The notes beneath the pieces were generated by a model. That model made no database searches. It had not been told where the DNA came from and saw only the letters and a program-made list of their open reading frames with translations. From Desulfobacteraceae bacterium (GTDB lineage Bacteria > Desulfobacterota > Desulfobacteria > Desulfobacterales > ETH-SRB1): a DNA stretch of 9,494 nt. A program made the position numbers and the translations under genes. Below are positions 370 to 9,494 of this stretch, piece after piece. Where the stretch lies: positions 1 to 9,494 of the forward strand of contig DAOWEW010000003.1 in NCBI GenBank assembly GCA_030638305.1, written 5' to 3'. Each line of letters begins with the position of its first letter. Positions within the stretch are counted from its first letter, which is position 1.

Positions 370-1440
370 TTATCGTATTAGTCTGATAACGTTTGTTTGA
401 TTGGCGCAATTTTTTCTAATACAAAAGATTTGTTTGATTTCTGCCGGTTCTGTTTTTGTAATTAAATTCAGATCATATGGATTGTCCTGAACCGGGCAGG
501 CATATCTAATCTGTTTTTTTAGCATAAGAGCGCCTGAAGCGCAATTGAAAGCCCCGGCTATTTTCATGCTGCCAAAAATTGGTGCATATCCCCCTGTAAA
601 AATATCCGCAGGCACAATATTTCTATATGTTGTTTCATCCCCTGCCATACCATCAGCTTCCACGATACATATATCAGGATTAGCTTCAGTTTCGCAATTA
701 TTCAGGGAAACTTGAATCATTTTACAATATTTATTCTGACAGTTTTCTAAGGTTGTCATAAAAAATACGCTTCCTTCCCCCGGGACAGCCGATGGTGAAG
801 CCGAAAAATTAAACGGTTTAATTTTACCGTCATTGGCGATTCGCAATTTTTGATTACATATATACTCCATAACATTACCGCATTCATCAACACAGCCGGT
901 AAGGACGTATTTGCAGCGTCCCTCTTCCAGCCATGCTTTAGCAAGAATAAGAGCCTGATGAATCGGCGAAGTGAACTGAGTTAGCGTTAAAGTCGGACCT
1001 CGAAAATTCAACACTGTTGAGATATATGATACTGCGGCATTATGAACTGAATGCGAAAACGTTGTCGGAGAGACACTGCCGTCACCGTAATCTATAATAT
1101 CATCAAGAAACCGAAAGGTTGTCACGTGGGGCCCGAAAGCTGTTGCGAGAATAATTCCAATAGCTGATTCTTTGTCATTAATTTGAATGCCGCTGTCAGC
1201 GACTGCATCCCATGCGGCCAGCACAGCCATTTTGCTAAATCTGTCTGCTCTGCGTATTTTTTTTGACAGATTTATATCATTAATAGTTTTTTTTTCAACT
1301 CTGTATGCGGGATAAAAAGCATTTTGATCGTTACACGACTTTATTTGAGATGGTGCGACCCAGCCTTCTCGCAATGCAATGTCAAGGCTGTCAATTCCGC
1401 GTCCTCTTGCAGAAATTATTCCTATTCCGGCAATATTCAT
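370..1440 (-). CDS. Catalytically inactive ketosynthase-like protein (chain-length-factor type)
   Basis: The 356-residue product has the overall length and fold cues of a beta-ketoacyl synthase: N-terminal NIAGIGIIS, a SPTTFSHSVHNA stretch near 124-135, GPTLTLTQ near 148-155 and PGEGS near 220-224. The catalytic residues are gone. The nucleophile Cys position (about 157) reads FTSP with Thr in place of Cys; the HGTGT-like motif reads ADGMAG, with Asp263 for the first His; the KGxTGHT motif reads MKIAGAF, with Ala297 for the second His. It is therefore most likely a non-catalytic partner, like the chain length factor of type II polyketide synthases, for the complete ketosynthase encoded 22 bp upstream. 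I chose the ATG at 1440 because it begins the canonical N-terminus; the frame is open further upstream but inside the previous gene. Shine-Dalgarno is weak, suggesting coupling. It is the last gene of the operon; 260-369 beyond it holds no convincing terminator. An A9 tract (1287-1295) lies in the message. Confidence 0.85.
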   Translation of the reverse strand: MNIAGIGIISARGRGIDSLDIALREGWVAPSQIKSCNDQNAFYPAYRVEKKTINDINLSKKIRRADRFSKMAVLAAWDAVADSGIQINDKESAIGIILATAFGPHVTTFRFLDDIIDYGDGSVSPTTFSHSVHNAAVSYISTVLNFRGPTLTLTQFTSPIHQALILAKAWLEEGRCKYVLTGCVDECGNVMEYICNQKLRIANDGKIKPFNFSASPSAVPGEGSVFFMTTLENCQNKYCKMIQVSLNNCETEANPDICIVEADGMAGDETTYRNIVPADIFTGGYAPIFGSMKIAGAFNCASGALMLKKQIRYACPVQDNPYDLNLITKTEPAEIKQIFCIRKNCANQTNVIRLIR

Positions 1441-1462
1441 GTAATATGCTTTTAAAAACGGT

Positions 1463-2665
1463 TTACGGTTGGTTGATTTGATCTCTGGCAATAACAATAG
1501 AGGCATTATTTCCGCCAAAAGCCAGGGATGTGGATACGGCAAAACTGCCATTTATTTGTGTCTGCTCTGTAACCGGTTTGACAGCTATATCATCATCCTG
1601 TTGCATAAAACCTGCGCTGGCAGGTATCCAGCCTTCTCTCAGTGCAGCGGCTGTAAATGCTGCTTCCAGACCTCCTGCGGCGCCAAGAGTATGGCCAGTA
1701 TAGCCTTTTGTTGAAAAAAAATTTATTTGCGGACCAAAAACTTTTTCAAGCACGATTCCTTCAACCTTATCATTATCATGAGTCGCAGTGCCGTGAGCAT
1801 TTACAAAACATACATCTTGTGGAGTAATTTTTGCATCAGAGAGAGATTTACGCAATGCTGACTCCAGTCCTGAACCGTCAGGATGAGGAGCTGTGAGATG
1901 GTATGCATCTGCCGCTGCTCCATATCCTGCAAGACGCAATACTGACTTTTTATTTCTACTGCGTGAGAATTCTTCTGTTTCAAGAATCAGAATACCTGCT
2001 CCTTCCCCTAAATTCAGACCCGATCTATCTTTGTCAAAAGGCCTGCATAAAGATTTGCTTAAAATCCCAAGTGCTCCAAAACCACATAAAGGTATCCTGT
2101 TTAATTCGTCTGCTCCACCGGCAATGGCAACATCGCAAACACCGGTTCTTAACCATGACAGAGCTGTTCCGATTGCATCAGCACCGGACGAACAGGCGTT
2201 AACTACAGTAACTGATGGCCCGTTTGCTTTTATTGATTTAGCTACAGCTTCGGCAAGATTACCCTTTAGAAAACGGTCAGCAGAGGCCATGTCTGCCGCT
2301 CCTGTATTCCGGTATGTTTGATAAAAATCAATGTCATTCAACTGGCTTGCCACGCTGGTTCCAAGACACACCCCGGTTTTAATGCCGGAAAAGTCCTTTT
2401 GCAGGCCGGCATCATGTAAAGCTTCTTTTAATGCGGATATAGCGAGAGACAGGGTGCGCATTTCGTTTTTTTGTTTACTAACTTGTTTACTAACTTGTTT
2501 ACTAATCAGGGGACTTTTTACCTCAAAAACCGGATAGGGTAGAGAAGTGTCGAACAAACTAACCGGGCCTGCGTTTCTTTTCATGAGCCTGAATGATTCC
2601 AGGTGCTCCGTTATATTTTTTCCGGCAGCAGAGATTCCGCCAATTCCTGTGATGAATATTTTCAT
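1463..2665 (-). CDS. Beta-ketoacyl-ACP synthase (FabF/FabB-like, catalytically complete)
   Basis: This 400-residue enzyme should condense an acyl chain with malonyl-ACP, extending it by two carbons in the cytosol. It is of full family length with a complete Cys-His-His triad: Cys158 in VVNACSSG, His291 in NAHGTATHD, and His325 in KGYTGHTLGAAGG with Lys320 ahead of it. PFDKDRSGLNLGEGAG (209-224) and the C-terminal FGGNN are also typical. It follows the ACP gene by 49 bp, an intergenic gap almost filled by a heptamer repeat, and precedes a dead ketosynthase-like gene, so it probably forms a KS/CLF-style heterodimer with that product. The ATG at 2665 begins the canonical FITGIGGIS strand; only a weak AAAGAG precedes it. 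Near residues 55-65 it carries SKQVSKQVSKQ, from a 12-bp DNA triplication absent from the other ketosynthase here. Chain specificity cannot be read from the sequence. Confidence 0.93.
   Translation of the reverse strand: MKIFITGIGGISAAGKNITEHLESFRLMKRNAGPVSLFDTSLPYPVFEVKSPLISKQVSKQVSKQKNEMRTLSLAISALKEALHDAGLQKDFSGIKTGVCLGTSVASQLNDIDFYQTYRNTGAADMASADRFLKGNLAEAVAKSIKANGPSVTVVNACSSGADAIGTALSWLRTGVCDVAIAGGADELNRIPLCGFGALGILSKSLCRPFDKDRSGLNLGEGAGILILETEEFSRSRNKKSVLRLAGYGAAADAYHLTAPHPDGSGLESALRKSLSDAKITPQDVCFVNAHGTATHDNDKVEGIVLEKVFGPQINFFSTKGYTGHTLGAAGGLEAAFTAAALREGWIPASAGFMQQDDDIAVKPVTEQTQINGSFAVSTSLAFGGNNASIVIARDQINQP
2471..2506. repeat. Three tandem 12-bp units inside the ketosynthase gene
   Basis: Unit TTGTTTACTAAC (plus strand) occurs at 2471-2482, 2483-2494 and 2495-2506; the last copy differs only in its final base. 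In the gene's frame it encodes SKQV-SKQV-SKQ. Because the unit is a multiple of three, copy-number change would lengthen or shorten a loop without breaking the frame. Confidence 0.9.
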
Positions 2666-2673
2666 TTCTCTTT

Positions 2674-2707
2674 AACCCTGAACCCTGAACCCTGAACCCT
2701 GAACCCA
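2674..2707. repeat. Heptamer tandem repeat, G-quadruplex-capable on the message strand
   Basis: Four perfect AACCCTG units on the plus strand (2674-2701) plus a partial fifth (AACCC, 2702-2706). On the transcribed message this is five GGG runs separated by exactly four bases (GGGTTCAGGGTTCAGGG and onward), meeting the usual G3N1-7 quadruplex pattern. It fills most of the gap between the ACP stop codon and the ketosynthase ATG, its last GGG ending 10 bases before that ATG, so it occupies the ribosome landing region. Confidence 0.92.
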
Positions 2708-2714
2708 TGAACGG

Positions 2715-2987
2715 TTATCTGTTTTCATATACGTAATTCGCCAGCGTATCAATCGAATAGAATATTTTTTGGCCTTCCTTCATATCTTTGATTTCTATAC
2801 CGAAGTTACGCTGAAGCAGTACAACAATTTCAACTGCGTCCAGAGAATCCAGCCCCAGGCCTTCTCCAAACAAAATTTCATCATCTTTAATATCTTCCGG
2901 ACTCACATCTTCTAATGAAAGATTTTCTACCAGCAGTTCTTTTAATTTTTTTCGTATTTCAGGCAATTCCATTTTTTTTTCTTCCAT
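2715..2987 (-). CDS. Acyl carrier protein
   Basis: A small acidic 90-residue protein with the acyl carrier signature GLDSLDAVEIV; Ser48 is the expected site for the 4'-phosphopantetheine arm that carries the growing chain as a thioester. Length and helical layout fit a stand-alone type II ACP: helix 1 around 8-22, the DSL at the start of helix 2, and a terminal helix ending at Asn89. It would serve the ketosynthases and deliver the product to the acyltransferase encoded immediately upstream. A strong ribosome site (AAGGAG, 6 nt spacing) supports the ATG at 2987; a second in-frame ATG at codon 6 is separated from it by an A9 tract. It is probably a dedicated carrier for this pathway, but a role in primary fatty-acid synthesis cannot be excluded from sequence alone. 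No phosphopantetheinyl transferase is seen in the window. Confidence 0.95.
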   Translation of the reverse strand: MEEKKMELPEIRKKLKELLVENLSLEDVSPEDIKDDEILFGEGLGLDSLDAVEIVVLLQRNFGIEIKDMKEGQKIFYSIDTLANYVYENR

Positions 2988-2993
2988 CTATAG

Positions 2994-2999
2994 CTCCTT
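2994..2999 (-). promoter_or_regulatory. Strong Shine-Dalgarno of the ACP gene
   Basis: Message strand AAGGAG lies 6 nt before the ATG at 2987 and overlaps the TAA stop of the acyltransferase gene. It is the best ribosome site in the window, fitting the high level at which a carrier protein is usually needed relative to its enzymes. Confidence 0.8.
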
Positions 3000-3906
3000 A
3001 TCCACTCCAGACATCATGAAACATGAAACATTGGTATGGATATTTTTTAACAAATGCCTCAATTATTTTTACGTAATTTTGAACCCACTGATGGAGTTGT
3101 TGGCGCTTATCATATTTTCCATCATAGCGTGGATATATTACATTGGATACATCAACAATATACTTACGGCTTGAAACCTTATTTGACAGCAAAACCACTA
3201 CAGGAGATTCAACTGCGGCGGCGACAGCAAAACCGCTGAAAGGGAACCATGCTTTTTCACGTAGAAATGAAACTTCAACGGCTTTAGCCCCGTATCTTCT
3301 GTCTCCCATGATAGATACAATATGGCCTTTTTTCAAAACATCCATTATTTCTACTATACCACCAAGATATTGATCCGGAGAAATAATTTTTATATTATCC
3401 TTTTCTCTGTCAATATTCAGCGAGCTTCGTACTGCCTTATTGTCTTCAGGGCGCATAAGAAGATATACTGTTCTTCCTGCTTTTTTTAAGGCAGTTAAGG
3501 CGATTTGCCAGCTGCCTGCATGTGATGTTAACAAGATTATTCCTTGTTTATTATTTTGAAGCAGGGCCATCAGCTCATTGTATCCATTGAGCTGAATATC
3601 AAATGTTGTATGCCCGGAAACAGACGCATATCTGTCAATAAGCTGCTTCCCCTGACTGATAAACAGACGGTAAATATGCAACAGCCTTATTAAATAGTTG
3701 CGATCAGGAAATCTTTTATTGATATATGGCAGGGCAGCAGAAACCGCAGTCCGGTCAAAAACCAAATAATAAAGGCATACAATATACAAAAAACCATATG
3801 TTTTGCGCAACCCGAATAATTTCAGGAGAGCTTTAAAAAACCAGAAGCCGAATTTGTTTCCTCTTTTCCGGATATTTATATTTTGTGACTGTTTATTCGG
3901 CTTCAT
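2998..3906 (-). CDS. LpxL/HtrB-like lysophospholipid acyltransferase
   Basis: This 302-residue protein matches the lipid A biosynthesis acyltransferase (LPLAT) superfamily. It has a hydrophobic N-terminal stretch (about 19-50) likely to anchor it to the inner membrane, the catalytic-site motif SHAGSWQ (His129 to Gln134), MGDRRYG (200-206) and a C-terminal YPYQCFMFHDVW. In LpxL the motif is HX4E; here Gln replaces the acid, which I recall also seeing in acyltransferases of aryl-polyene-type clusters. It would transfer an acyl chain from ACP to a lipid or sugar acceptor, so it is the likely step that puts the product of this locus into a membrane lipid. The frame is open to a GTG at 3957, but I prefer the ATG at 3906 because it gives a normal N-terminus and only a 14-bp overlap with the glycosyltransferase gene, with a weak AAGAG before it. 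Confidence 0.87.
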   Translation of the reverse strand: MKPNKQSQNINIRKRGNKFGFWFFKALLKLFGLRKTYGFLYIVCLYYLVFDRTAVSAALPYINKRFPDRNYLIRLLHIYRLFISQGKQLIDRYASVSGHTTFDIQLNGYNELMALLQNNKQGIILLTSHAGSWQIALTALKKAGRTVYLLMRPEDNKAVRSSLNIDREKDNIKIISPDQYLGGIVEIMDVLKKGHIVSIMGDRRYGAKAVEVSFLREKAWFPFSGFAVAAAVESPVVVLLSNKVSSRKYIVDVSNVIYPRYDGKYDKRQQLHQWVQNYVKIIEAFVKKYPYQCFMFHDVWSG

Positions 3907-5086
3907 AATTACTGATTCTCTTGAGAAACATTTGCGCAGCACTAAATACAACGGCACCTGTTAATAATGCTGCTATTGGTGCAACGATCAAAGAACCAAG
4001 CAACCACTCTATAAGTCTTGCCGGAAGCTGTCCAAAAATTGTATTCAGGCTAATATCTGTCAGCCAGTGACCGTTTTGCATATAATAGCCCAGCTCAATG
4101 CAAATTAGTGGAACAAAAGGAGGCATGCATAAGTGTTGTATATTCAATGCCATTATTTTATTCAGATGCAGACGCGTTGCAACATAGGCAATTACCAAGG
4201 TATGCATTGATATAAGAGGCAGTACGGCAAAAAAGGTTCCAACTGCGGCCGACATGGCCAATCCGCCAGGGCTTGCGTTTTCTTTCAGTAATTTTTTTAC
4301 CAACTTTACAGGATGACGCATTAAACTGAAGTCAACCTGCTTTTTATGGGCCGCAACAACTTTTCGGTGCGGAAACGGTAAAAGGCGTCTTCCAACCAGC
4401 CTGGTATGCATACATGAAATGCGGAAATTATCTATAAATGGTTTAAAACCGGAAATTCGCAGATGAGGTTCAGGATACCAGACGTCAATTTCAACAGTTT
4501 TTAAATACAGTCCGGCCCAAACCGCTCTGGCCAGAACTTCAGCCTCAAAATCGTAATGCGAACCTTTCATGTCCAACGATAAAAGATGTTTTACAGGGTA
4601 AGCCCGAAATCCACTCTGGCAATCATCAATGGATACACCTGTTTCCACTCTGAGCCAGAAATTTGCAAGCTTTCTTCCAAACCGGCTTGAATTTGGAATG
4701 TTTTTTCCATTAAATTTTCTACATCCGATAATTATGGATGTTTCATCATCCTGAAGCAAAGGTATAAAATTTTCTAAATTCCGGGGATAGTGCTGGCCAT
4801 CTGCATCTATGGTAATCATAAAACGACCGCCATTGGCTTCAACATACCTTAAAGCAGTAAGAATAGCCTGTCCCTTTCCTTTGTTTTTATTATGCGTCAG
4901 CACCTCAACATCGCTTCCGGAAAATAATGCTGAAATATCCGTATCAGTACTGCCATCGTCAACAACAACCACTTTTTGCAAATATGAACGGCAACCCGAA
5001 ACAACATCTTTAACAGTATTCTTATTGTTAAAGACCGGAATAACGCACCAGATATGTTCAGTTGAAAATGAGCTGTTCTTTTCCAT
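3893..5086 (-). CDS. Family 2 glycosyltransferase fused to a DUF2062 membrane domain
   Basis: Two-part protein of 397 residues. The N-terminal part (about 10-230) is a GT-A fold family 2 glycosyltransferase resembling dolichyl-phosphate-mannose or undecaprenyl-phosphate sugar transferases: VIPVFN, VVVDDGSTD (41-48), the metal-binding DADGQH (94-99) and DDCQSGFRAYP (154-164). The C-terminal part (about 255-390) is a DUF2062 domain with hydrophobic segments near 278-303, 318-333 and 362-386, placing it in the inner membrane. It probably moves a sugar from a nucleotide donor to a lipid acceptor; substrate and linkage are unknown. It lies 28 bp after the second radical SAM gene and overlaps the acyltransferase by 14 bp, suggesting the two act on the same headgroup or product. 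Start choice is open: an in-frame GTG at 5092 lies nearer the GGAAA ribosome site; I prefer the ATG at 5086. Confidence 0.9.
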   Translation of the reverse strand: MEKNSSFSTEHIWCVIPVFNNKNTVKDVVSGCRSYLQKVVVVDDGSTDTDISALFSGSDVEVLTHNKNKGKGQAILTALRYVEANGGRFMITIDADGQHYPRNLENFIPLLQDDETSIIIGCRKFNGKNIPNSSRFGRKLANFWLRVETGVSIDDCQSGFRAYPVKHLLSLDMKGSHYDFEAEVLARAVWAGLYLKTVEIDVWYPEPHLRISGFKPFIDNFRISCMHTRLVGRRLLPFPHRKVVAAHKKQVDFSLMRHPVKLVKKLLKENASPGGLAMSAAVGTFFAVLPLISMHTLVIAYVATRLHLNKIMALNIQHLCMPPFVPLICIELGYYMQNGHWLTDISLNTIFGQLPARLIEWLLGSLIVAPIAALLTGAVVFSAAQMFLKRISNYEAE

Positions 5087-5114
5087 GCGCACTTATTTCC
5101 AAATAGCTAAAAAG

Positions 5115-6470
5115 TTAGCTTTTACGACCTTGTTCATCCTTTGCAAGAAGCATGTCCCACAAGGATCCGGAGTACCCGAGTTTATGAAGAAACTGCAAAC
5201 TGCTATCCAGAACATCAGGCGGAAAAATACAATGCCTTATGCCTTTAAAACTATTGTTCAATGTATTTTCAAGCCATTGTTTATCTATTCCAGGCGCAAT
5301 ATAATATACGGGTTCAAGTAATTCCCGGTCAGGCGAAATAATGCCTTGCTTCATTGCAATCCTGGCAAGAGCGGTATCAGGAAGAATGCGTATACCCATA
5401 AAAATAAATGAAACAGTTTTTTTCAGGTTTATTATATTATGTATTCCTTCCATAACAGTTTCTTGTGTTTCACCCGGGCAGCCAAACATGTAATAATGCG
5501 CTGTAGCGACACCGTTACGGATAAAAAGGTCGTTACATTTGATAATATCATTAAATTGAAAAGATTTGCCCAGTTTCTTCAGTGTGATGTTTGATGCAGC
5601 ATCAGCTCCAATTTCCGCAGCTTTAAGACCGGTTTGTTTCATGAGATGTATATGTTCGTCATCAAGGCCTTCGGGCTTGAAAAAAGCCGTCCATGGAATA
5701 AATATACCGCGCCTTTTCATTTCATTGACCACATCAAGATAGCGGCCATTGTCATCATTAAATACGGAATCGGTAAAGAATATATATTTGACCTTGTGTT
5801 CATTCATCAGGGTATTAATATCATTAACGACCTCTATAGGGTCCCTGCAACGAATAGTTGAACCTTCAAGAACAGGATAAGAACAATACACGCATTTATG
5901 AGTACAGCCACGTTTTGTCTGGATGGAAGCTATATTGCCGCTTTTCAGATAAAATTGCATAATGTCGGAATCATAAAATGCAGAAGGGATTTCATTCCCG
6001 CTCAACTTTAATGATGTTTTGATACATCTGTGCTCCGGATATTTTCCCTGCCTGGCATTATTAACAAACTCAACCATTAATTTTTCGCCTTCTCCTACAA
6101 TTCCGTAGTCAGCGCCAACTTTGCGCAGAATTATCTCCGGCATAATAGAAAACCCTGAACCACCCACAACAATTTTAGCATTTGTTGCCTGCCGAATTTT
6201 TTTTACTATATTTCCTGCTGCATCAATATATCTCTGTTCATTTAGCAGATTGACGTTGTCAATATTTCGTATTGATATGCCGATAATTTCCGGATTGACT
6301 TGTTTAATCCGATTTCCCAGCTTATCCAATGAGCAGTTATTTTGAAGGAAGTCAAATTGGTATACATCATAACCTGCTTTTTTCAGTGCTGCGGCAACCA
6401 TACTTAACCCAAGCGGATATGCAGGATAAGGAGTGGTCGCGATATTGGAAGAAATTAAAAGGATTTTCAT
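5115..6470 (-). CDS. B12-binding-domain radical SAM enzyme, lipid-biosynthesis type (second of two)
   Basis: This 451-residue protein has an N-terminal cobalamin-binding-like Rossmann domain (about 1-135, with PLGLSMVAAALKKAGYDV, PEIIGISIRN, VVGGSGFSI and GIVGEGE). A radical SAM domain follows, its 4Fe-4S ligands in the CX3CX2C motif RGCTHKCVYCS (Cys189, Cys193, Cys196). MFGCPGETQET is the usual late strand of the family. No DxHxxG motif is seen in the B12 domain, so any cobalamin would be bound without a protein His ligand, as in many members. Known relatives methylate unactivated carbons or make or rearrange C-C bonds; the context suggests the substrate is an acyl chain or lipid. It overlaps the preceding radical SAM gene by ATGA (6470-6467), indicating translational coupling. 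NCBI uses the family name 'lipid biosynthesis B12-binding/radical SAM protein' for proteins that look like this; I could not check the assignment. Confidence 0.9.
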   Translation of the reverse strand: MKILLISSNIATTPYPAYPLGLSMVAAALKKAGYDVYQFDFLQNNCSLDKLGNRIKQVNPEIIGISIRNIDNVNLLNEQRYIDAAGNIVKKIRQATNAKIVVGGSGFSIMPEIILRKVGADYGIVGEGEKLMVEFVNNARQGKYPEHRCIKTSLKLSGNEIPSAFYDSDIMQFYLKSGNIASIQTKRGCTHKCVYCSYPVLEGSTIRCRDPIEVVNDINTLMNEHKVKYIFFTDSVFNDDNGRYLDVVNEMKRRGIFIPWTAFFKPEGLDDEHIHLMKQTGLKAAEIGADAASNITLKKLGKSFQFNDIIKCNDLFIRNGVATAHYYMFGCPGETQETVMEGIHNIINLKKTVSFIFMGIRILPDTALARIAMKQGIISPDRELLEPVYYIAPGIDKQWLENTLNNSFKGIRHCIFPPDVLDSSLQFLHKLGYSGSLWDMLLAKDEQGRKS

Positions 6471-7741
6471 AATTCTCTATTTTTTTTGCCGGGTACCGGC
6501 CATGAACGATTTGAACTCAGGTCGATATTATTATATGTTCCGTCTTTCTTTTCTTTCTCAATAACTTCAAGATACAGTTTTGCCATTTTTATTTCTTTAC
6601 AGCAATCAGCATAGAATGCTTCCCAAGCATATTCATACATTTTTTGCAGTGAGTCCACACTCATTTTTTTTGGTTTAAAAACAACTTCACCGGCAGTATA
6701 ATGTTCCCAGTTATTATGAATTATTCTGTTTTCCTTCTCCAGTTGTTTTCTGACAGGAGAATGTGGAAAGGGCGTAAGAATAGTAAATTCTGCAAGATCC
6801 AGATCTATTTCCAGCAAAAAATCTACCAGTCGTTTAATATAATCTTCGTCATGATCATCTAATCCCAGAAGAATAGTGCCCTCAACTCCAATGCCGCGTT
6901 CTTTTAACCGCTTTATCTTGTTGCGGATATGATCAGAAGTGTCCACAATAGCCTGATATACATACCAGCATCCAGCCTCTACAGCCAGATCAAGTATTTC
7001 ATCATCATCTTTTATCGGATGAGATATCCATTTTTTTTTAAGAGGTGCAATAGATTTAAACAAGAGCTTTTCCCAGTCATCGTTTTGAGCCAGTGAATTA
7101 TCAACAAAAAACAGACGGTTGTTGTTAATACTTTCCAGTTCTTTTATTACTGCTTTAATGGGACGCGGTCTGAACTTGCGTCCTCCAAGAAATGGGGTGC
7201 AGCAGGGGAAACAGTTAAAACGGCAACCGCGTGAAGCATGGATAAGATCAACCATTTGAACGCCTCGAAAGTTATACAGTTCGCGTTTTAAAATACTGCG
7301 TCTTGCGGTTCCAACCAATGATATATCTGGAAAATTCTGATGGTAATTATAGATCTTTTTTAACCGGCCTTTCTTAAAATCTTCAATAACGGCATCAAAA
7401 CGTCCTTCCGGTTCGCCGATGAACACAGAATCAGCATGCTGCATAGTTTCTTCAGCATGCAGCATTGTTGCAATCCCGCCGAAAATAACTATTTTTCCGT
7501 GAGCTCTGTACCAGTCAGCAATTTTCCAGGCACGTGGTATCTGGCAGGTCAGCATGACTGAAATGGCTATTAAATCAGCTTGTTCATATAAGTCGAGTTC
7601 TTCGACGTTTTCATCGCAAAAAGAAATTTCGACATCATCTTTTATCGTCGCAGCAAAAACAACCGGGCCGTGAGGCGGCAAATTAAATTCAGGCTGATTT
7701 TTTAATTTTGGCCATTTGGGGTATATCAGTTTAATTTTCAC
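6467..7741 (-). CDS. B12-binding-domain radical SAM enzyme (first of two)
   Basis: A 424-residue protein with a cobalamin-binding-type N-terminal domain (CDENVEELD at 42-50, ADLIAISVMLT 55-65, FGGIATMLHAEE 87-98, GEPEG 109-113) and a radical SAM domain with CX3CX2C cluster ligands in RGCRFNCFPCC (Cys173, Cys177, Cys180). An extra Cys181 follows directly. LFFVDNS (210-216), GTILLGLDDHDEDY (288-301) and ILTPFPHSP (321-329) are typical of the Mg-protoporphyrin cyclase (BchE)/hopanoid C2-methylase (HpnP) branch. It shares little sequence with the second radical SAM protein, so the two probably catalyse different steps rather than being recent duplicates. The start is GTG at 7741, overlapping the previous stop as GTGA, with AAAAGG 6 nt upstream. 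The substrate is unknown; an acyl-ACP or lipid is inferred from the neighbours. Confidence 0.9.
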   Translation of the reverse strand: MKIKLIYPKWPKLKNQPEFNLPPHGPVVFAATIKDDVEISFCDENVEELDLYEQADLIAISVMLTCQIPRAWKIADWYRAHGKIVIFGGIATMLHAEETMQHADSVFIGEPEGRFDAVIEDFKKGRLKKIYNYHQNFPDISLVGTARRSILKRELYNFRGVQMVDLIHASRGCRFNCFPCCTPFLGGRKFRPRPIKAVIKELESINNNRLFFVDNSLAQNDDWEKLLFKSIAPLKKKWISHPIKDDDEILDLAVEAGCWYVYQAIVDTSDHIRNKIKRLKERGIGVEGTILLGLDDHDEDYIKRLVDFLLEIDLDLAEFTILTPFPHSPVRKQLEKENRIIHNNWEHYTAGEVVFKPKKMSVDSLQKMYEYAWEAFYADCCKEIKMAKLYLEVIEKEKKDGTYNNIDLSSNRSWPVPGKKNREL

Positions 7742-8406
7742 GTAATACCTTTTCTTTGTAACGTTATTACCATTTCATCGAAATCAGATATTTTTTCAAT
7801 AGTATCAACTACGTCTTCAAGGGATAGCGATTTCATAGTTGAAGTATTATCTTTATTGTCCAGAACAAAGCAAACAGCTTTTTCCTCATTTGCCTCAACT
7901 GCAATCGTTTTTGATGTTTCTCCACGAAGGATCATTTTGCCGGCATAATGCAGCATTGATGGTATCTGATTATGCTGGAATTTAATATATAGCAGAGGCC
8001 CCTGGCACCCAAAATAAATTGCTGCTTCAGCCATGGGAGTTGAGGGCAGGGTATAGATAAAAAGATTCCCCCTTGCGATTGTACGACCGCATGAAACATA
8101 ATCCTTAAAATAAGCCAGGTTAGACTCAAAGCATCCATCATTGTTTGTGCCTAGAATGCCAATGTCATGTTTCATATGCTCGGAATAAGTTATCCCGGCA
8201 TCATTCAGGGCAAGGGCTATGGAGCAGCAAGTCATCTTTGAAGTGGCATCAAACCTTCCGAAATTTTTAATCGCATACTTTAACACAGATTCATACTGCA
8301 AATGAGAATGTAACGATTTTAAATCATTATAATTACCTTGCAGCTTTTTTATAATACTGCCGTATCCGGTCAGTGTGATCCAGCCGATTCCTTTAATGAC
8401 AATCAT
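7738..8406 (-). CDS. Half-length ketosynthase-like protein without active-site Cys
   Basis: This 222-residue protein corresponds to the N-terminal half of a beta-ketoacyl synthase (it resembles the Pfam 'Ketoacyl-synt_2' type found in aryl-polyene-like loci). It begins IKGIGWITLTGYGS, has the DIGILGTNNDGCFESNLAYF region (81-100), LFIYTLPSTPMAEAAIYFG (115-133) and GPLLYI (136-141). Where an active enzyme has its nucleophile Cys it reads KFQHNQIP, with no Cys (about 142-149). The C-terminal half carrying both catalytic His residues is missing. No frameshift is needed to explain this: the frame runs cleanly to a TGA that overlaps the next gene's GTG, so it looks like a maintained short protein, not debris. 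It follows a complete ketosynthase by 18 bp and may be its regulatory or structural partner. A ribosome site is not obvious before the ATG at 8406. Confidence 0.8.
   Translation of the reverse strand: MIVIKGIGWITLTGYGSIIKKLQGNYNDLKSLHSHLQYESVLKYAIKNFGRFDATSKMTCCSIALALNDAGITYSEHMKHDIGILGTNNDGCFESNLAYFKDYVSCGRTIARGNLFIYTLPSTPMAEAAIYFGCQGPLLYIKFQHNQIPSMLHYAGKMILRGETSKTIAVEANEEKAVCFVLDNKDNTSTMKSLSLEDVVDTIEKISDFDEMVITLQRKGIT
7748..7753 (-). promoter_or_regulatory. Ribosome binding site deciding the GTG start of the first radical SAM gene
   Basis: Message strand AAAAGG lies 6 nt before GTG at 7741, inside the end of the half-ketosynthase gene. With the GTGA overlap it supports translation from GTG, giving the normal MKIKLIYPKW N-terminus for this family; the next Met would delete the first B12-domain strand. 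Confidence 0.65.
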
Positions 8407-8424
8407 AAGTTTACAGTTTACGGT

Positions 8425-9494
8425 TCACCCTTTTTTTAACACCACAGCACAGTTAACCCCGCCAAATCCGGAGTTTGTCGAAATTGTTACCGAACCATCG
8501 AGCGTTAAAGGCTCAGGGGAAACCCACCCTGAAGCCTCATTATCAATATTGCACAGGTTTACGGTAGGTGGAACAATTTTTTTATTTAAGGACTCAAATG
8601 CTATGATTATTTCTAAAAGACCGGCTGCTCCCAGTGTATGGCCTGTTCCACCTTTAATAGAATATACCGGGATTTTATGGTTTCCAAAAACAGTTTCCAA
8701 TGCCTTGATTTCCATTGAATCATTATATATGGTTCCTGTGCCGTGGGCTGAAAAGCAGCCAATATCTTTTTCTGAGACATTTGCGGATTTAAGTGCTTTG
8801 CGTATAGCCATGGCAAGTCCGCTTCCATCCCGTGATGGCCCTGTCATATGATTGGCATCATTTGTCAATCCCCATCCAGCGATTTCTCCAATTACAGGCC
8901 TGTTTTCTCTTAATGCTCTTGATTCGCTCATCAACAATAAAAATCCGGATGCTTCACCAAGGCTCAACCCGTTCCTGTCCCTGTCAAAGGGTTTTGCCAT
9001 ATCTTTATCAAGCGCCATTAAAGAAGAAAATCCTGCAAAAACGAATTCACTTACACTATCGCAGGCAACAACCATCGCACAGTCATTTTCATTGCTGATA
9101 ATCATTCCGGCAGCCTGAGCCACAGCAATGCTTGATGAGGCGCATGCTGCTGAAACAACAATACCGAGGCTGCTAAGCTCACACAAAAGCGATATTTTTT
9201 CAAGCAATTTATCCGGTCGGCTGCTTGCAGCATCAGTACTCTCAATCAGAACATGTCTTTCCAGTTTATCAATTTCACCAGCCGTAGTCGCCAAAATCAG
9301 AAATGCATCTTCAGGAATTGAAGAAATATTTTTTTGCAGCAATGGGTTTAGCATTTTTATGATAATTGACTCATCCTGCCCGTACGTCAGGCCAGGAACA
9401 ACAGCAGCATTTTGCGTAAGAAAAGACTTTGTGGGGAATCTGTCAAGTCGCCCTATTGCTGTTTTTTTTGCTAACAACCCATTCCAGCAGGAAT
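8425..9494 (-). CDS. Beta-ketoacyl-ACP synthase (FabF-like, catalytically complete), 5' end outside the window
   Basis: The frame runs off the right edge: upstream of an internal TTG at 9477 the codons read SCWNG, matching the family's usual helix before LLAKKTAIGRLDRF. About 20-30 N-terminal residues, including the start, are therefore missing. Numbering from the TTG codon, the catalytic triad is complete: Cys112 in VVSAACASSS, His245 in SAHGTGT, and His280 in KGGTGHTLGAAG with Lys275. PFDRDRNGLSLGEASG (163-178) and the C-terminal GFGGVNCAVVL are also classical. It should condense acyl groups with malonyl-ACP. Its product differs clearly in sequence from the other complete ketosynthase in the window, so the two pairs probably act at different steps or on different chain lengths. 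It is followed after 18 bp by a Cys-less half ketosynthase. The operon promoter must lie beyond the right edge. Confidence 0.93.
   Translation of the reverse strand, partial: SCWNGLLAKKTAIGRLDRFPTKSFLTQNAAVVPGLTYGQDESIIIKMLNPLLQKNISSIPEDAFLILATTAGEIDKLERHVLIESTDAASSRPDKLLEKISLLCELSSLGIVVSAACASSSIAVAQAAGMIISNENDCAMVVACDSVSEFVFAGFSSLMALDKDMAKPFDRDRNGLSLGEASGFLLLMSESRALRENRPVIGEIAGWGLTNDANHMTGPSRDGSGLAMAIRKALKSANVSEKDIGCFSAHGTGTIYNDSMEIKALETVFGNHKIPVYSIKGGTGHTLGAAGLLEIIIAFESLNKKIVPPTVNLCNIDNEASGWVSPEPLTLDGSVTISTNSGFGGVNCAVVLKKG

What the first reader, a model, noticed from the sequence alone, without database searches (positions are those of the whole stretch)
370..9494. Type II ketosynthase locus with two KS/inactive-KS pairs around two B12 radical SAM enzymes
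Seen: two complete ketosynthases, each followed by a ketosynthase-like protein without catalytic residues, plus ACP, LPLAT acyltransferase, GT2-DUF2062 and two B12-type radical SAM enzymes, all on one strand with overlaps or gaps under 50 bp. Known: aryl-polyene loci use a KS/chain-length-factor heterodimer with ACP, acyltransferase and glycosyltransferase, and ladderane candidate loci combine FabF-like genes and radical SAM genes. Inference: this operon builds an unusual radical-modified (methylated, cross-linked or cyclised) acyl chain and installs it in a glycolipid. I do not recognise this exact combination as a characterised pathway.
Basis: partly seen in the sequence, partly recalled or inferred. 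Interest (0 to 1): 0.75.

Follow-up and report, generated by a model that had tools for sequence, protein, structure and literature searches.

The report
Flexirubin-like lipid cluster with radical enzymes
This stretch of DNA, apparently from an oxygen-avoiding deltaproteobacterium, is the core of a widespread but chemically uncharacterised lipid-making gene cluster related to those for bacterial polyene pigments and to the proposed ladderane locus of anammox bacteria, and it carries two vitamin-B12 radical enzymes that probably decorate the growing chain.

Summary
In detail: nine co-directional genes, two ketosynthases with intact Cys-His-Lys-His, each followed by an inactive KS-like partner, plus two B12 radical SAM enzymes, GT2-DUF2062, LPLAT and ACP (KS1 is cut by the window edge). 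35 of 80 related loci, mostly MAGs of several phyla, hold all nine families, in the same order, often inside a larger cluster with LolA, MMPL exporter, LolB-like protein, dehydratase, thioesterase and a C-domain-fold acyltransferase; ketoreductase, CrtD-like oxidoreductase and third KS lie further up in 3 of 3 extended loci. rSAM2 is NCBIfam TIGR04072 (640.8 bits, cut-off 360). The relatives' ligase, reductase and LolA score best with flexirubin models, below cut-off. The 222-residue partner is half-size, like ApeC of aryl polyenes. Two anammox-like genomes carry a sister cluster with the same two KS/partner pairs, FlxY-like ligase and TIGR04072, in a separate clade; a third anammox-like genome shows no such cluster at its homologue. 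Best reading: an anaerobic flexirubin/aryl-polyene-like type II PKS whose acyl chain is modified (probably C-methylated) by B12 radical enzymes and put into an outer-membrane lipid. Product unknown; chemistry inferred. New variant of a known kind.

The parts
8425..9492 (-). KS1: active beta-ketoacyl synthase (5' end cut by the window edge)
   Evidence: Pfam PF00109/PF02801; C-H-K-H in 48 of 48 full-length relatives
7738..8406 (-). p2: half-size, inactive KS-like partner (ApeC-like chain-length-factor kind), 222 aa
6467..7741 (-). rSAM1: B12-binding radical SAM enzyme, unnamed family, CX3CX2CC
   Evidence: PF02310/PF04055 slightly below cut-off; cysteines kept in 61-62 of 63; mean identity 73% over 25 loci and the window, the highest of six genes compared
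5115..6470 (-). rSAM2: NCBIfam TIGR04072 B12-binding radical SAM enzyme
   Evidence: 640.8 bits, cut-off 360; CX3CX2C and R68-N-x-D in 75 of 75; R68 aligns, by my count in the printed alignment, with residue 69 (Arg) of 6wte
3893..5086 (-). GT2 glycosyltransferase with C-terminal DUF2062
   Evidence: PF00535 + PF09835; two Asp of DDG and both Asp of DxD kept in 51 of 51
2998..3906 (-). LPLAT (lipid A acyltransferase family), HX4Q
   Evidence: PF03279; H and Q invariant in 55 of 55
2715..2987 (-). Acyl carrier protein
   Evidence: PF00550; NCBIfam PRK09184 79.1 bits, cut-off 70; Ser kept in 48 of 48
1463..2665 (-). KS2: active beta-ketoacyl synthase, PRK09185-like (303.7 bits, cut-off 407)
   Evidence: C-H-K-H in 48 of 48 relatives
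370..1440 (-). CLF2: full-length inactive KS-like partner (chain-length-factor-like)
   Evidence: PF00109; hits 7f28_A at E 2.8e-4 (7F28 is ApeO-ApeC); first catalytic His lost in 36 of 36

Best explanation
The window is the core of an anaerobic relative of flexirubin/aryl-polyene clusters. A type II, mainly polyene-forming ketosynthase system (KS1 with half-size partner p2, KS2 with CLF2, on the ACP; ketoreductase and dehydratases come from other parts of the cluster in relatives) builds an acyl chain from an acid activated by a FlxY-like ligase. The two B12 radical SAM enzymes modify that chain or its head group, most likely by C-methylation of an sp2 carbon. LPLAT and GT2-DUF2062 put the chain into a (glyco)lipid, which LolA, an MMPL/RND exporter and a LolB-like lipoprotein carry to the outer membrane. 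Shown: gene content, conserved order, folds of two proteins (predicted), catalytic residues, relation to TIGR04072 and to flexirubin/APE-type proteins. Inferred: the product, the pairing of the KSs with their partners, the order of steps, what each radical enzyme does, the membrane location.
Against: All flexirubin models score below their equivalog cut-offs, and the one reductase tested passes plain FabG cut-offs (287.6/273, 243.8/222), so it is not a flexirubin cluster proper; exporter, thioesterase and third KS score best with other models, and another LolB-like protein had no NCBIfam hit. The 4HBT, LPLAT and GT could serve another lipid. B12 radical enzymes include cyclases and others, so methylation is a guess from distant relatives. 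No carrier's lipid is known to me. The LPLAT has Gln where an acidic residue is recalled for the family. Ligase, exporter and LolA are not in the window; in five close relatives the exporter was found in 4 of 5 and the C-domain-fold acyltransferase in 4 of 5, partly on other contigs. Some loci with the enzyme have a different setting (L063, L065, L066, L072, L074, L075), and the named isolate Desulfamplus (L071) shows no p2 or GT2.
Confidence: 0.55

Rival explanations
1. It is a ladderane or ladderane-precursor (PUFA/polyunsaturated hydrocarbon) pathway, as proposed for Kuenenia and Desulfotalea, with the radical enzymes desaturating or cyclising the chain.
For: rSAM2 is TIGR04072. Anammox-like genomes G094 and G174 (12 and 14 matches to PF13447) carry KS-CLF-MT-KS-half-CLF-FlxY-like ligase-rSAM/SPASM-TIGR04072-...-FabA-like-MT-MMPL-oxidoreductase-GT2, which fits the functions listed by locus number for kuste3335-3352 in Javidpour 2016 (passages); two more genomes of the same order show it too (L196, L197).
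Against: On the rSAM2 tree the window type (74 of 74 sequences, support 0.851) is apart from a clade of anammox-type sequences (8, support 0.972). The two anammox methyltransferases have no homologue within the flanks searched (0 and 1 of 81). Even among likely anammox kin the gene is not general: over cut-off in 7 of 59 genomes of the order of G094, and the anammox-like G159 (10 PF13447 matches) has only a 338.9-bit homologue without KS neighbours on its 19.6-kb contig. The one window-type carrier labelled Brocadiaceae (L076) has no PF13447 match (incomplete MAG). Rattray 2009 found no ladderanes in Desulfotalea (abstract and discussion).
Confidence: 0.15
2. The radical enzymes form rings rather than methylate: KS1 with p2 works like the KS/cyclisation-factor pair AmcF-AmcG, and rSAM1/rSAM2 close or cross-link a carbocycle on the ACP-bound chain.
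For: p2 is a short KS-like partner like AmcG (PMC10698177, section 9 and passages); KS1 and KS2 score 192.6 and 239.1 bits with the AmcF model, CLF2 45 with AmcG, ACP 42.6 with AmcB; BchE-type B12 radical enzymes are cyclases (recalled).
Against: All Amc scores are below cut-off; 0 of 39 p2 relatives match AmcG at E <= 0.1; half-size partners also occur in aryl-polyene systems, so half size does not imply cyclisation.
Confidence: 0.2
3. Primary lipid metabolism: a variant FASII/lipid A module that makes an unusual but ordinary membrane fatty acid, with the radical enzymes acting on something else (e.g. cofactors).
For: KS2 and KS1 are FabF-like; LPLAT is a lipid A acyltransferase homologue.
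Against: Long-conserved linkage of both radical enzymes with two KS/inactive-KS pairs and with LolA/MMPL/LolB across phyla; patchy presence: TIGR04072 scores of 567 bits or more in 22 of 395 genomes of one phylum (which scored at most four candidates a genome).
Confidence: 0.07

Closest known systems
Flexirubin clusters (NCBIfam FlxY, FlxB, LolA2, LolB2)
   Same: Best-scoring curated models for the ligase (3 of 3), the one reductase and both LolA proteins tested from relatives' clusters
   Different: All below equivalog cut-offs; B12 radical SAM enzymes are extra; host lifestyle differs (recalled)
Aryl polyene (APE) clusters
   Same: KS with half-size CLF, further KS, ACPs, DH, KR, thioesterase, LPLAT, GT, LolA, RND exporter, DUF3261/LolB-like
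   Different: Two to four radical SAM enzymes, a full-length second CLF, a C-domain-fold acyltransferase, CrtD-like and FAD oxidoreductases; no product known
Anammox-type 'ladderane' FASII locus (kuste3335-3352) and its counterparts in other bacteria (Rattray 2009)
   Same: TIGR04072 enzyme, two KS/inactive-partner pairs one of them half-size, FlxY-like ligase, rSAM/SPASM, MMPL, hotdog, GT2
   Different: Separate rSAM2 clade; anammox methyltransferases missing within the flanks; window type adds rSAM1 next to rSAM2, LPLAT, LolA/LolB, thioesterase, C-domain-fold acyltransferase
Cispentacin KS-CYF system (AmcF-AmcG)
   Same: Short KS-like partner beside a KS and an ACP
   Different: Below model cut-offs; p2 relatives do not match AmcG
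TsrM-type tryptophan C2-methyltransferase / BzaD
   Same: Nearest named or solved relatives of rSAM2; Arg at the position of residue 69 of 6wte
   Different: Far below their cut-offs (140.3/500 and 214.3/450); substrate unknown

Membership tests
NCBIfam TIGR04072 (lipid biosynthesis B12-binding/radical SAM protein) | Score over curated cut-off of 360 bits | tested here: met
   640.8 bits, positions 1-442 of 443
Flexirubin cluster | FlxY, FlxB, LolA2, LolB2 over equivalog cut-offs | tested here: not met
   458.5/520, 301.9/340, 112.5/125, 25.8/60 at best, in a few relatives' clusters; the genes themselves are outside the window
Aryl polyene cluster | KS paired with half-size, single-thiolase-fold CLF | tested here: inconclusive
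   Size and predicted fold of p2 fit the ApeC description in PMC8358021; 7f28_A is not in the list for the p2 profile and the pairing with KS1 was not tested
Aryl polyene cluster | LolA, RND/MMPL exporter, LolB/DUF3261, thioesterase, dehydratase, KR in the cluster | tested here: met
   In relatives: LolA 40/44, MMPL 41/47, 4HBT 41/51, hotdog 45/50, LolB-like label in 44 of 80, KR 3 of 3 extended; not inside the window
Aryl polyene cluster | Aryl polyene carboxylic acid product | not testable with these tools
   needs lipid chemistry
Anammox-type ladderane locus | rSAM2 in the same clade as anammox-type sequences | tested here: not met
   window type 74/74 apart, support 0.851; anammox type 8 sequences, 0.972
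Anammox-type ladderane locus | Two SAM methyltransferases (kuste3347-, kuste3338-like) in the cluster | tested here: not met
   0 and 1 of 81 (80 loci and the window) at E <= 1e-5, within flanks of at most 10 kb
Anammox-type ladderane locus | Ladderane lipids made | not testable with these tools
   no lipid data for a window-type carrier found
Cispentacin-type KS-CYF (AmcF-AmcG) | AmcG (80 bits) and AmcF (325 bits) cut-offs | tested here: not met
   CLF2 45 bits AmcG; KS2 239.1, KS1 192.6 AmcF; p2 relatives 0 of 39 AmcG at E <= 0.1

The most novel reading that the evidence does not exclude
The anammox-type ladderane locus and this window-type cluster are branches of one anaerobic superfamily related to flexirubin/aryl-polyene machinery, in which B12 radical SAM enzymes act on an ACP-bound polyene: in some anammox bacteria (with an overlooked half-CLF at the place of kuste3345) towards ladderanes, here towards an undescribed methylated or carbocyclic outer-membrane lipid made by deltaproteobacterial, Nitrospirae, Omnitrophota and PVC lineages.
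Probability: 0.25. Interest if true: 0.78.

Novelty: new variant of a known kind. Interest (0 to 1): 0.52.

Why it matters
How anammox bacteria make ladderanes is still unresolved (PMC9821293, passages); Kuenenia genes expressed in E. coli gave no new fatty acid products (PMC4790861, passages). A sister cluster with the same two KS/partner pairs and the same radical SAM family, present in bacteria of which some are isolates (Desulfamplus magnetovallimortis, L071, though without p2 and GT2; Desulfosarcina sp. BuS5 has an 83% identical rSAM1), offers a second place to learn what TIGR04072 enzymes do to an ACP-bound chain. It may also explain part of the antiSMASH 'ladderane' calls in non-anammox MAGs, such as those of the Cariaco Basin study (PMC9902471, passages), as flexirubin/APE-like lipid clusters.

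Tried and rejected
(1) Own genome: none is held. (2) Mobile or viral setting: no relative of rSAM2 confirmed in viral contigs, only remote B12 rSAMs in 10 plasmid records, all under 60% identity; no Rfam match. (3) The idea that the half-size p2 is a cyclisation factor like AmcG and thus special: weakened when an APE paper showed half-size CLFs there too and p2 relatives did not match AmcG. (4) The idea that the window-type cluster lacks a ketoreductase: an artefact of the 10 kb flanks; an SDR lies further up in 3 of 3 extended loci. (5) Orthology of the two KS pairs with the two anammox-type pairs: inconclusive; KSs beside a full CLF are nearer KS2 (5 of 5), those beside the half partner only marginally nearer KS1 (5 of 5, differences 0.03-0.04), no outgroup. 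(6) A search for papers on C31 hydrocarbons with Desulfotalea found none; a link of the cluster to Ole-type hydrocarbons was not tested. (7) Promoter/terminator scan: 41 promoter-like sites against 27.5 expected, mostly 9 of 12 matches, and 7 terminator-like against 8.3; nothing used. (9) Profile and fold lists do not exclude families that are not listed.
Full report

Both radical enzymes are real and constrained. rSAM2 scores 640.8 bits with NCBIfam TIGR04072 (cut-off 360). CX3CX2C and the R-N-x-D motif are invariant in 75 of 75 relatives; the Arg aligns, by my count, with residue 69 of 6wte, tryptophan C2-methyltransferase, which I recall as lying by the cobalamin. rSAM1 passes no curated cut-off but is the most conserved of six genes compared over 25 loci and the window (mean identity 73%, against 54-62%), with its cluster cysteines kept in 61-62 of 63.

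Conserved cluster. A scan of genome contigs with the rSAM2 alignment found 211 relatives; the best 80 were kept: mostly MAGs labelled Deltaproteobacteria/Desulfobacterales, Nitrospirae, Omnitrophota, PVC groups, Elusimicrobia and others. Of these 80, 35 carry all nine families, all 35 on one strand in the window's order; many of the rest are cut by contig ends. In loci long enough to tell: rSAM1 abutting rSAM2 55 of 70 (a strict count; several misses are labelled rSAM1 but fail the distance rule), p2 53 of 63, KS1 49 of 57, GT2 61 of 74, LPLAT 58 of 69, ACP 54 of 63, KS2 42 of 56, CLF2 39 of 52, MMPL 41 of 47, LolA 40 of 44, hotdog 45 of 50, 4HBT 41 of 51, the 440-residue protein 36 of 49. Exceptions: L063, L065, L066, L072, L074 and L075 show few of the families or another arrangement, L064 and L070 lack KS1, p2 and rSAM1, and Desulfamplus (L071) lacks p2 and GT2. 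Distances between loci correlate between genes (r 0.72-0.90), which fits joint inheritance but does not separate it from species history.

Source. DNA identity is 87-94% to L001-L005, MAGs labelled Deltaproteobacteria or Desulfobacteraceae, one contig named EthSRB1. In their genomes the exporter and the C-domain-fold acyltransferase exist in 4 of 5 each, the exporter on the same contig in L004, others on other contigs. In L131 (genome of L004) CLF2 is followed by the BamE-like gene, ACP2 and the 440-residue protein; in L005, and in the 369 bp seen in the window, it is not.

Relation to ladderane loci. In 199 genomes of the phylum of L076, 13 hold TIGR04072 over cut-off. Of the 16 with strong matches, three (G094, G159, G174) have 10-14 matches to PF13447, the other 13 have 0-2, which I take as an anammox marker. 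G094 (440.0 bits) and G174 (417.6) have there: polysaccharide deacetylase, KS, CLF, methyltransferase, KS, a 195-198 aa half-CLF, FlxY-like ligase (422.5 and 451.9 bits), rSAM/SPASM (up to 47% identical to window-type ones), TIGR04072, SDR (seen in G094), ACP, FabA-like, methyltransferase, MMPL, amine-oxidase-type oxidoreductase, GT2. This fits the functions listed by locus number for kuste3335-3352 in the passages of Javidpour 2016 and the description in Rattray 2009 (Rattray's figure was not seen). G159 (338.9, below cut-off) has no KS beside its homologue. In the order of G094, 7 of 59 genomes are over cut-off and many more carry a 304-342-bit paralogue; four of the seven were inspected and all four have the arrangement (L101, L107, L196, L197). 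The short gene at the place of kuste3345, listed as 'unknown' in print, matches the p2 model (24.5 and 32.0 bits; hhalign probability 96.5%). A B12 radical SAM gene 32% identical to the window's rSAM1 (34% to the best relative) lies about 4 kb upstream of the first KS in G094 (L103). Two loci from the phylum of G002 hold the anammox-type order too (L180, L182). The rSAM2 tree (107 sequences and 3 outgroups; FastTree supports, rerooted by script) keeps that type (8 sequences, 0.972) apart from the window type (74 sequences, 0.851; 80 with six near relatives at 1.0). In the phylum of G002, 84 of 395 genomes are over the cut-off, 22 of them at 567 bits or more, the rest mostly 360-440 (at most four candidates scored a genome); TIGR04072 therefore holds several cluster types, and seven homologues from L076's phylum have no KS neighbour (L108-L110, L112, L113, L115, L116).

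Reading. Gene roles match the aryl-polyene list of PMC8253772 (Table 1 in passages), and ApeC of APE is half-size like p2 (PMC8358021, passages). The best-scoring curated names for ligase, reductase and LolA are flexirubin ones, below cut-off. I therefore call it an anaerobic flexirubin/APE-like type II PKS with B12 radical tailoring, and a sister of the anammox type, not a member of either. The chemistry of the radical enzymes is inferred from distant relatives (BzaD, TsrM): methylation first, ring formation second.

Literature limits. The library is open-access PMC only. The listings of searches showed no paper giving a product for this cluster type. Rattray 2009 (abstract, first parts of sections 8 and 11, passages) proposes anaerobic PUFA or hydrocarbon synthesis for the shared loci; the Cariaco Basin paper (passages) calls the function of ladderane clusters in non-anammox MAGs unknown; the anammox methyltransferase paper (passages) states that the ring-forming enzymes are not identified.

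Noticed in passing
window 2674-2712: Telomere-like tandem repeat (AACCCTG, 5.4 copies, 96% match) in the longest gap, between ACP and KS2.
   Followed up: no
window 2471-2505: In-frame 12-bp tandem repeat (2.9 copies, perfect) in KS2, coding a KQVS repeat; the DNA alignment of L002 to the window breaks here.
   Followed up: no
window 2998-3906: The LPLAT has HX4Q where the lipid A acyltransferase family is recalled to have HX4D/E; Gln in 55 of 55 relatives.
   Followed up: partly
L006:16992-18335 and 32 other loci: A conserved ~440 aa protein next to ACP2, without Pfam or NCBIfam match in two members scanned, folds like condensation-domain/wax-synthase/PapA5 acyltransferases with an HxxxDA motif.
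   Followed up: yes
L101:8065-8649 (and L107:6863-7459): In anammox-like genomes the gene at the place of kuste3345 ('unknown' in print) is a half-size KS-like protein beside a KS, and the 'phenylacetyl-CoA ligase' is FlxY-like.
   Followed up: partly
G159 (L117) and the order of G094: Only 7 of 59 genomes of the order are over the TIGR04072 cut-off; 22 more carry only a paralogue of about 304-342 bits, and G159's has no KS neighbours.
   Followed up: partly
L126:2181-3741: In one close relative a fragment matching window 4921-5421 (end of rSAM2/start of GT2) sits directly beside CLF2, as if the genes between were lost or the assembly collapsed.
   Followed up: no
L103:15214-16557: A B12 radical SAM gene about a third identical to rSAM1 lies about 4 kb upstream of the anammox-type locus in G094.
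   Followed up: partly
L108, L109, L110, L112, L113, L115, L116: Genomes of L076's phylum with TIGR04072-like enzymes but no KS neighbours; the family seems to hold other functions too.
   Followed up: no
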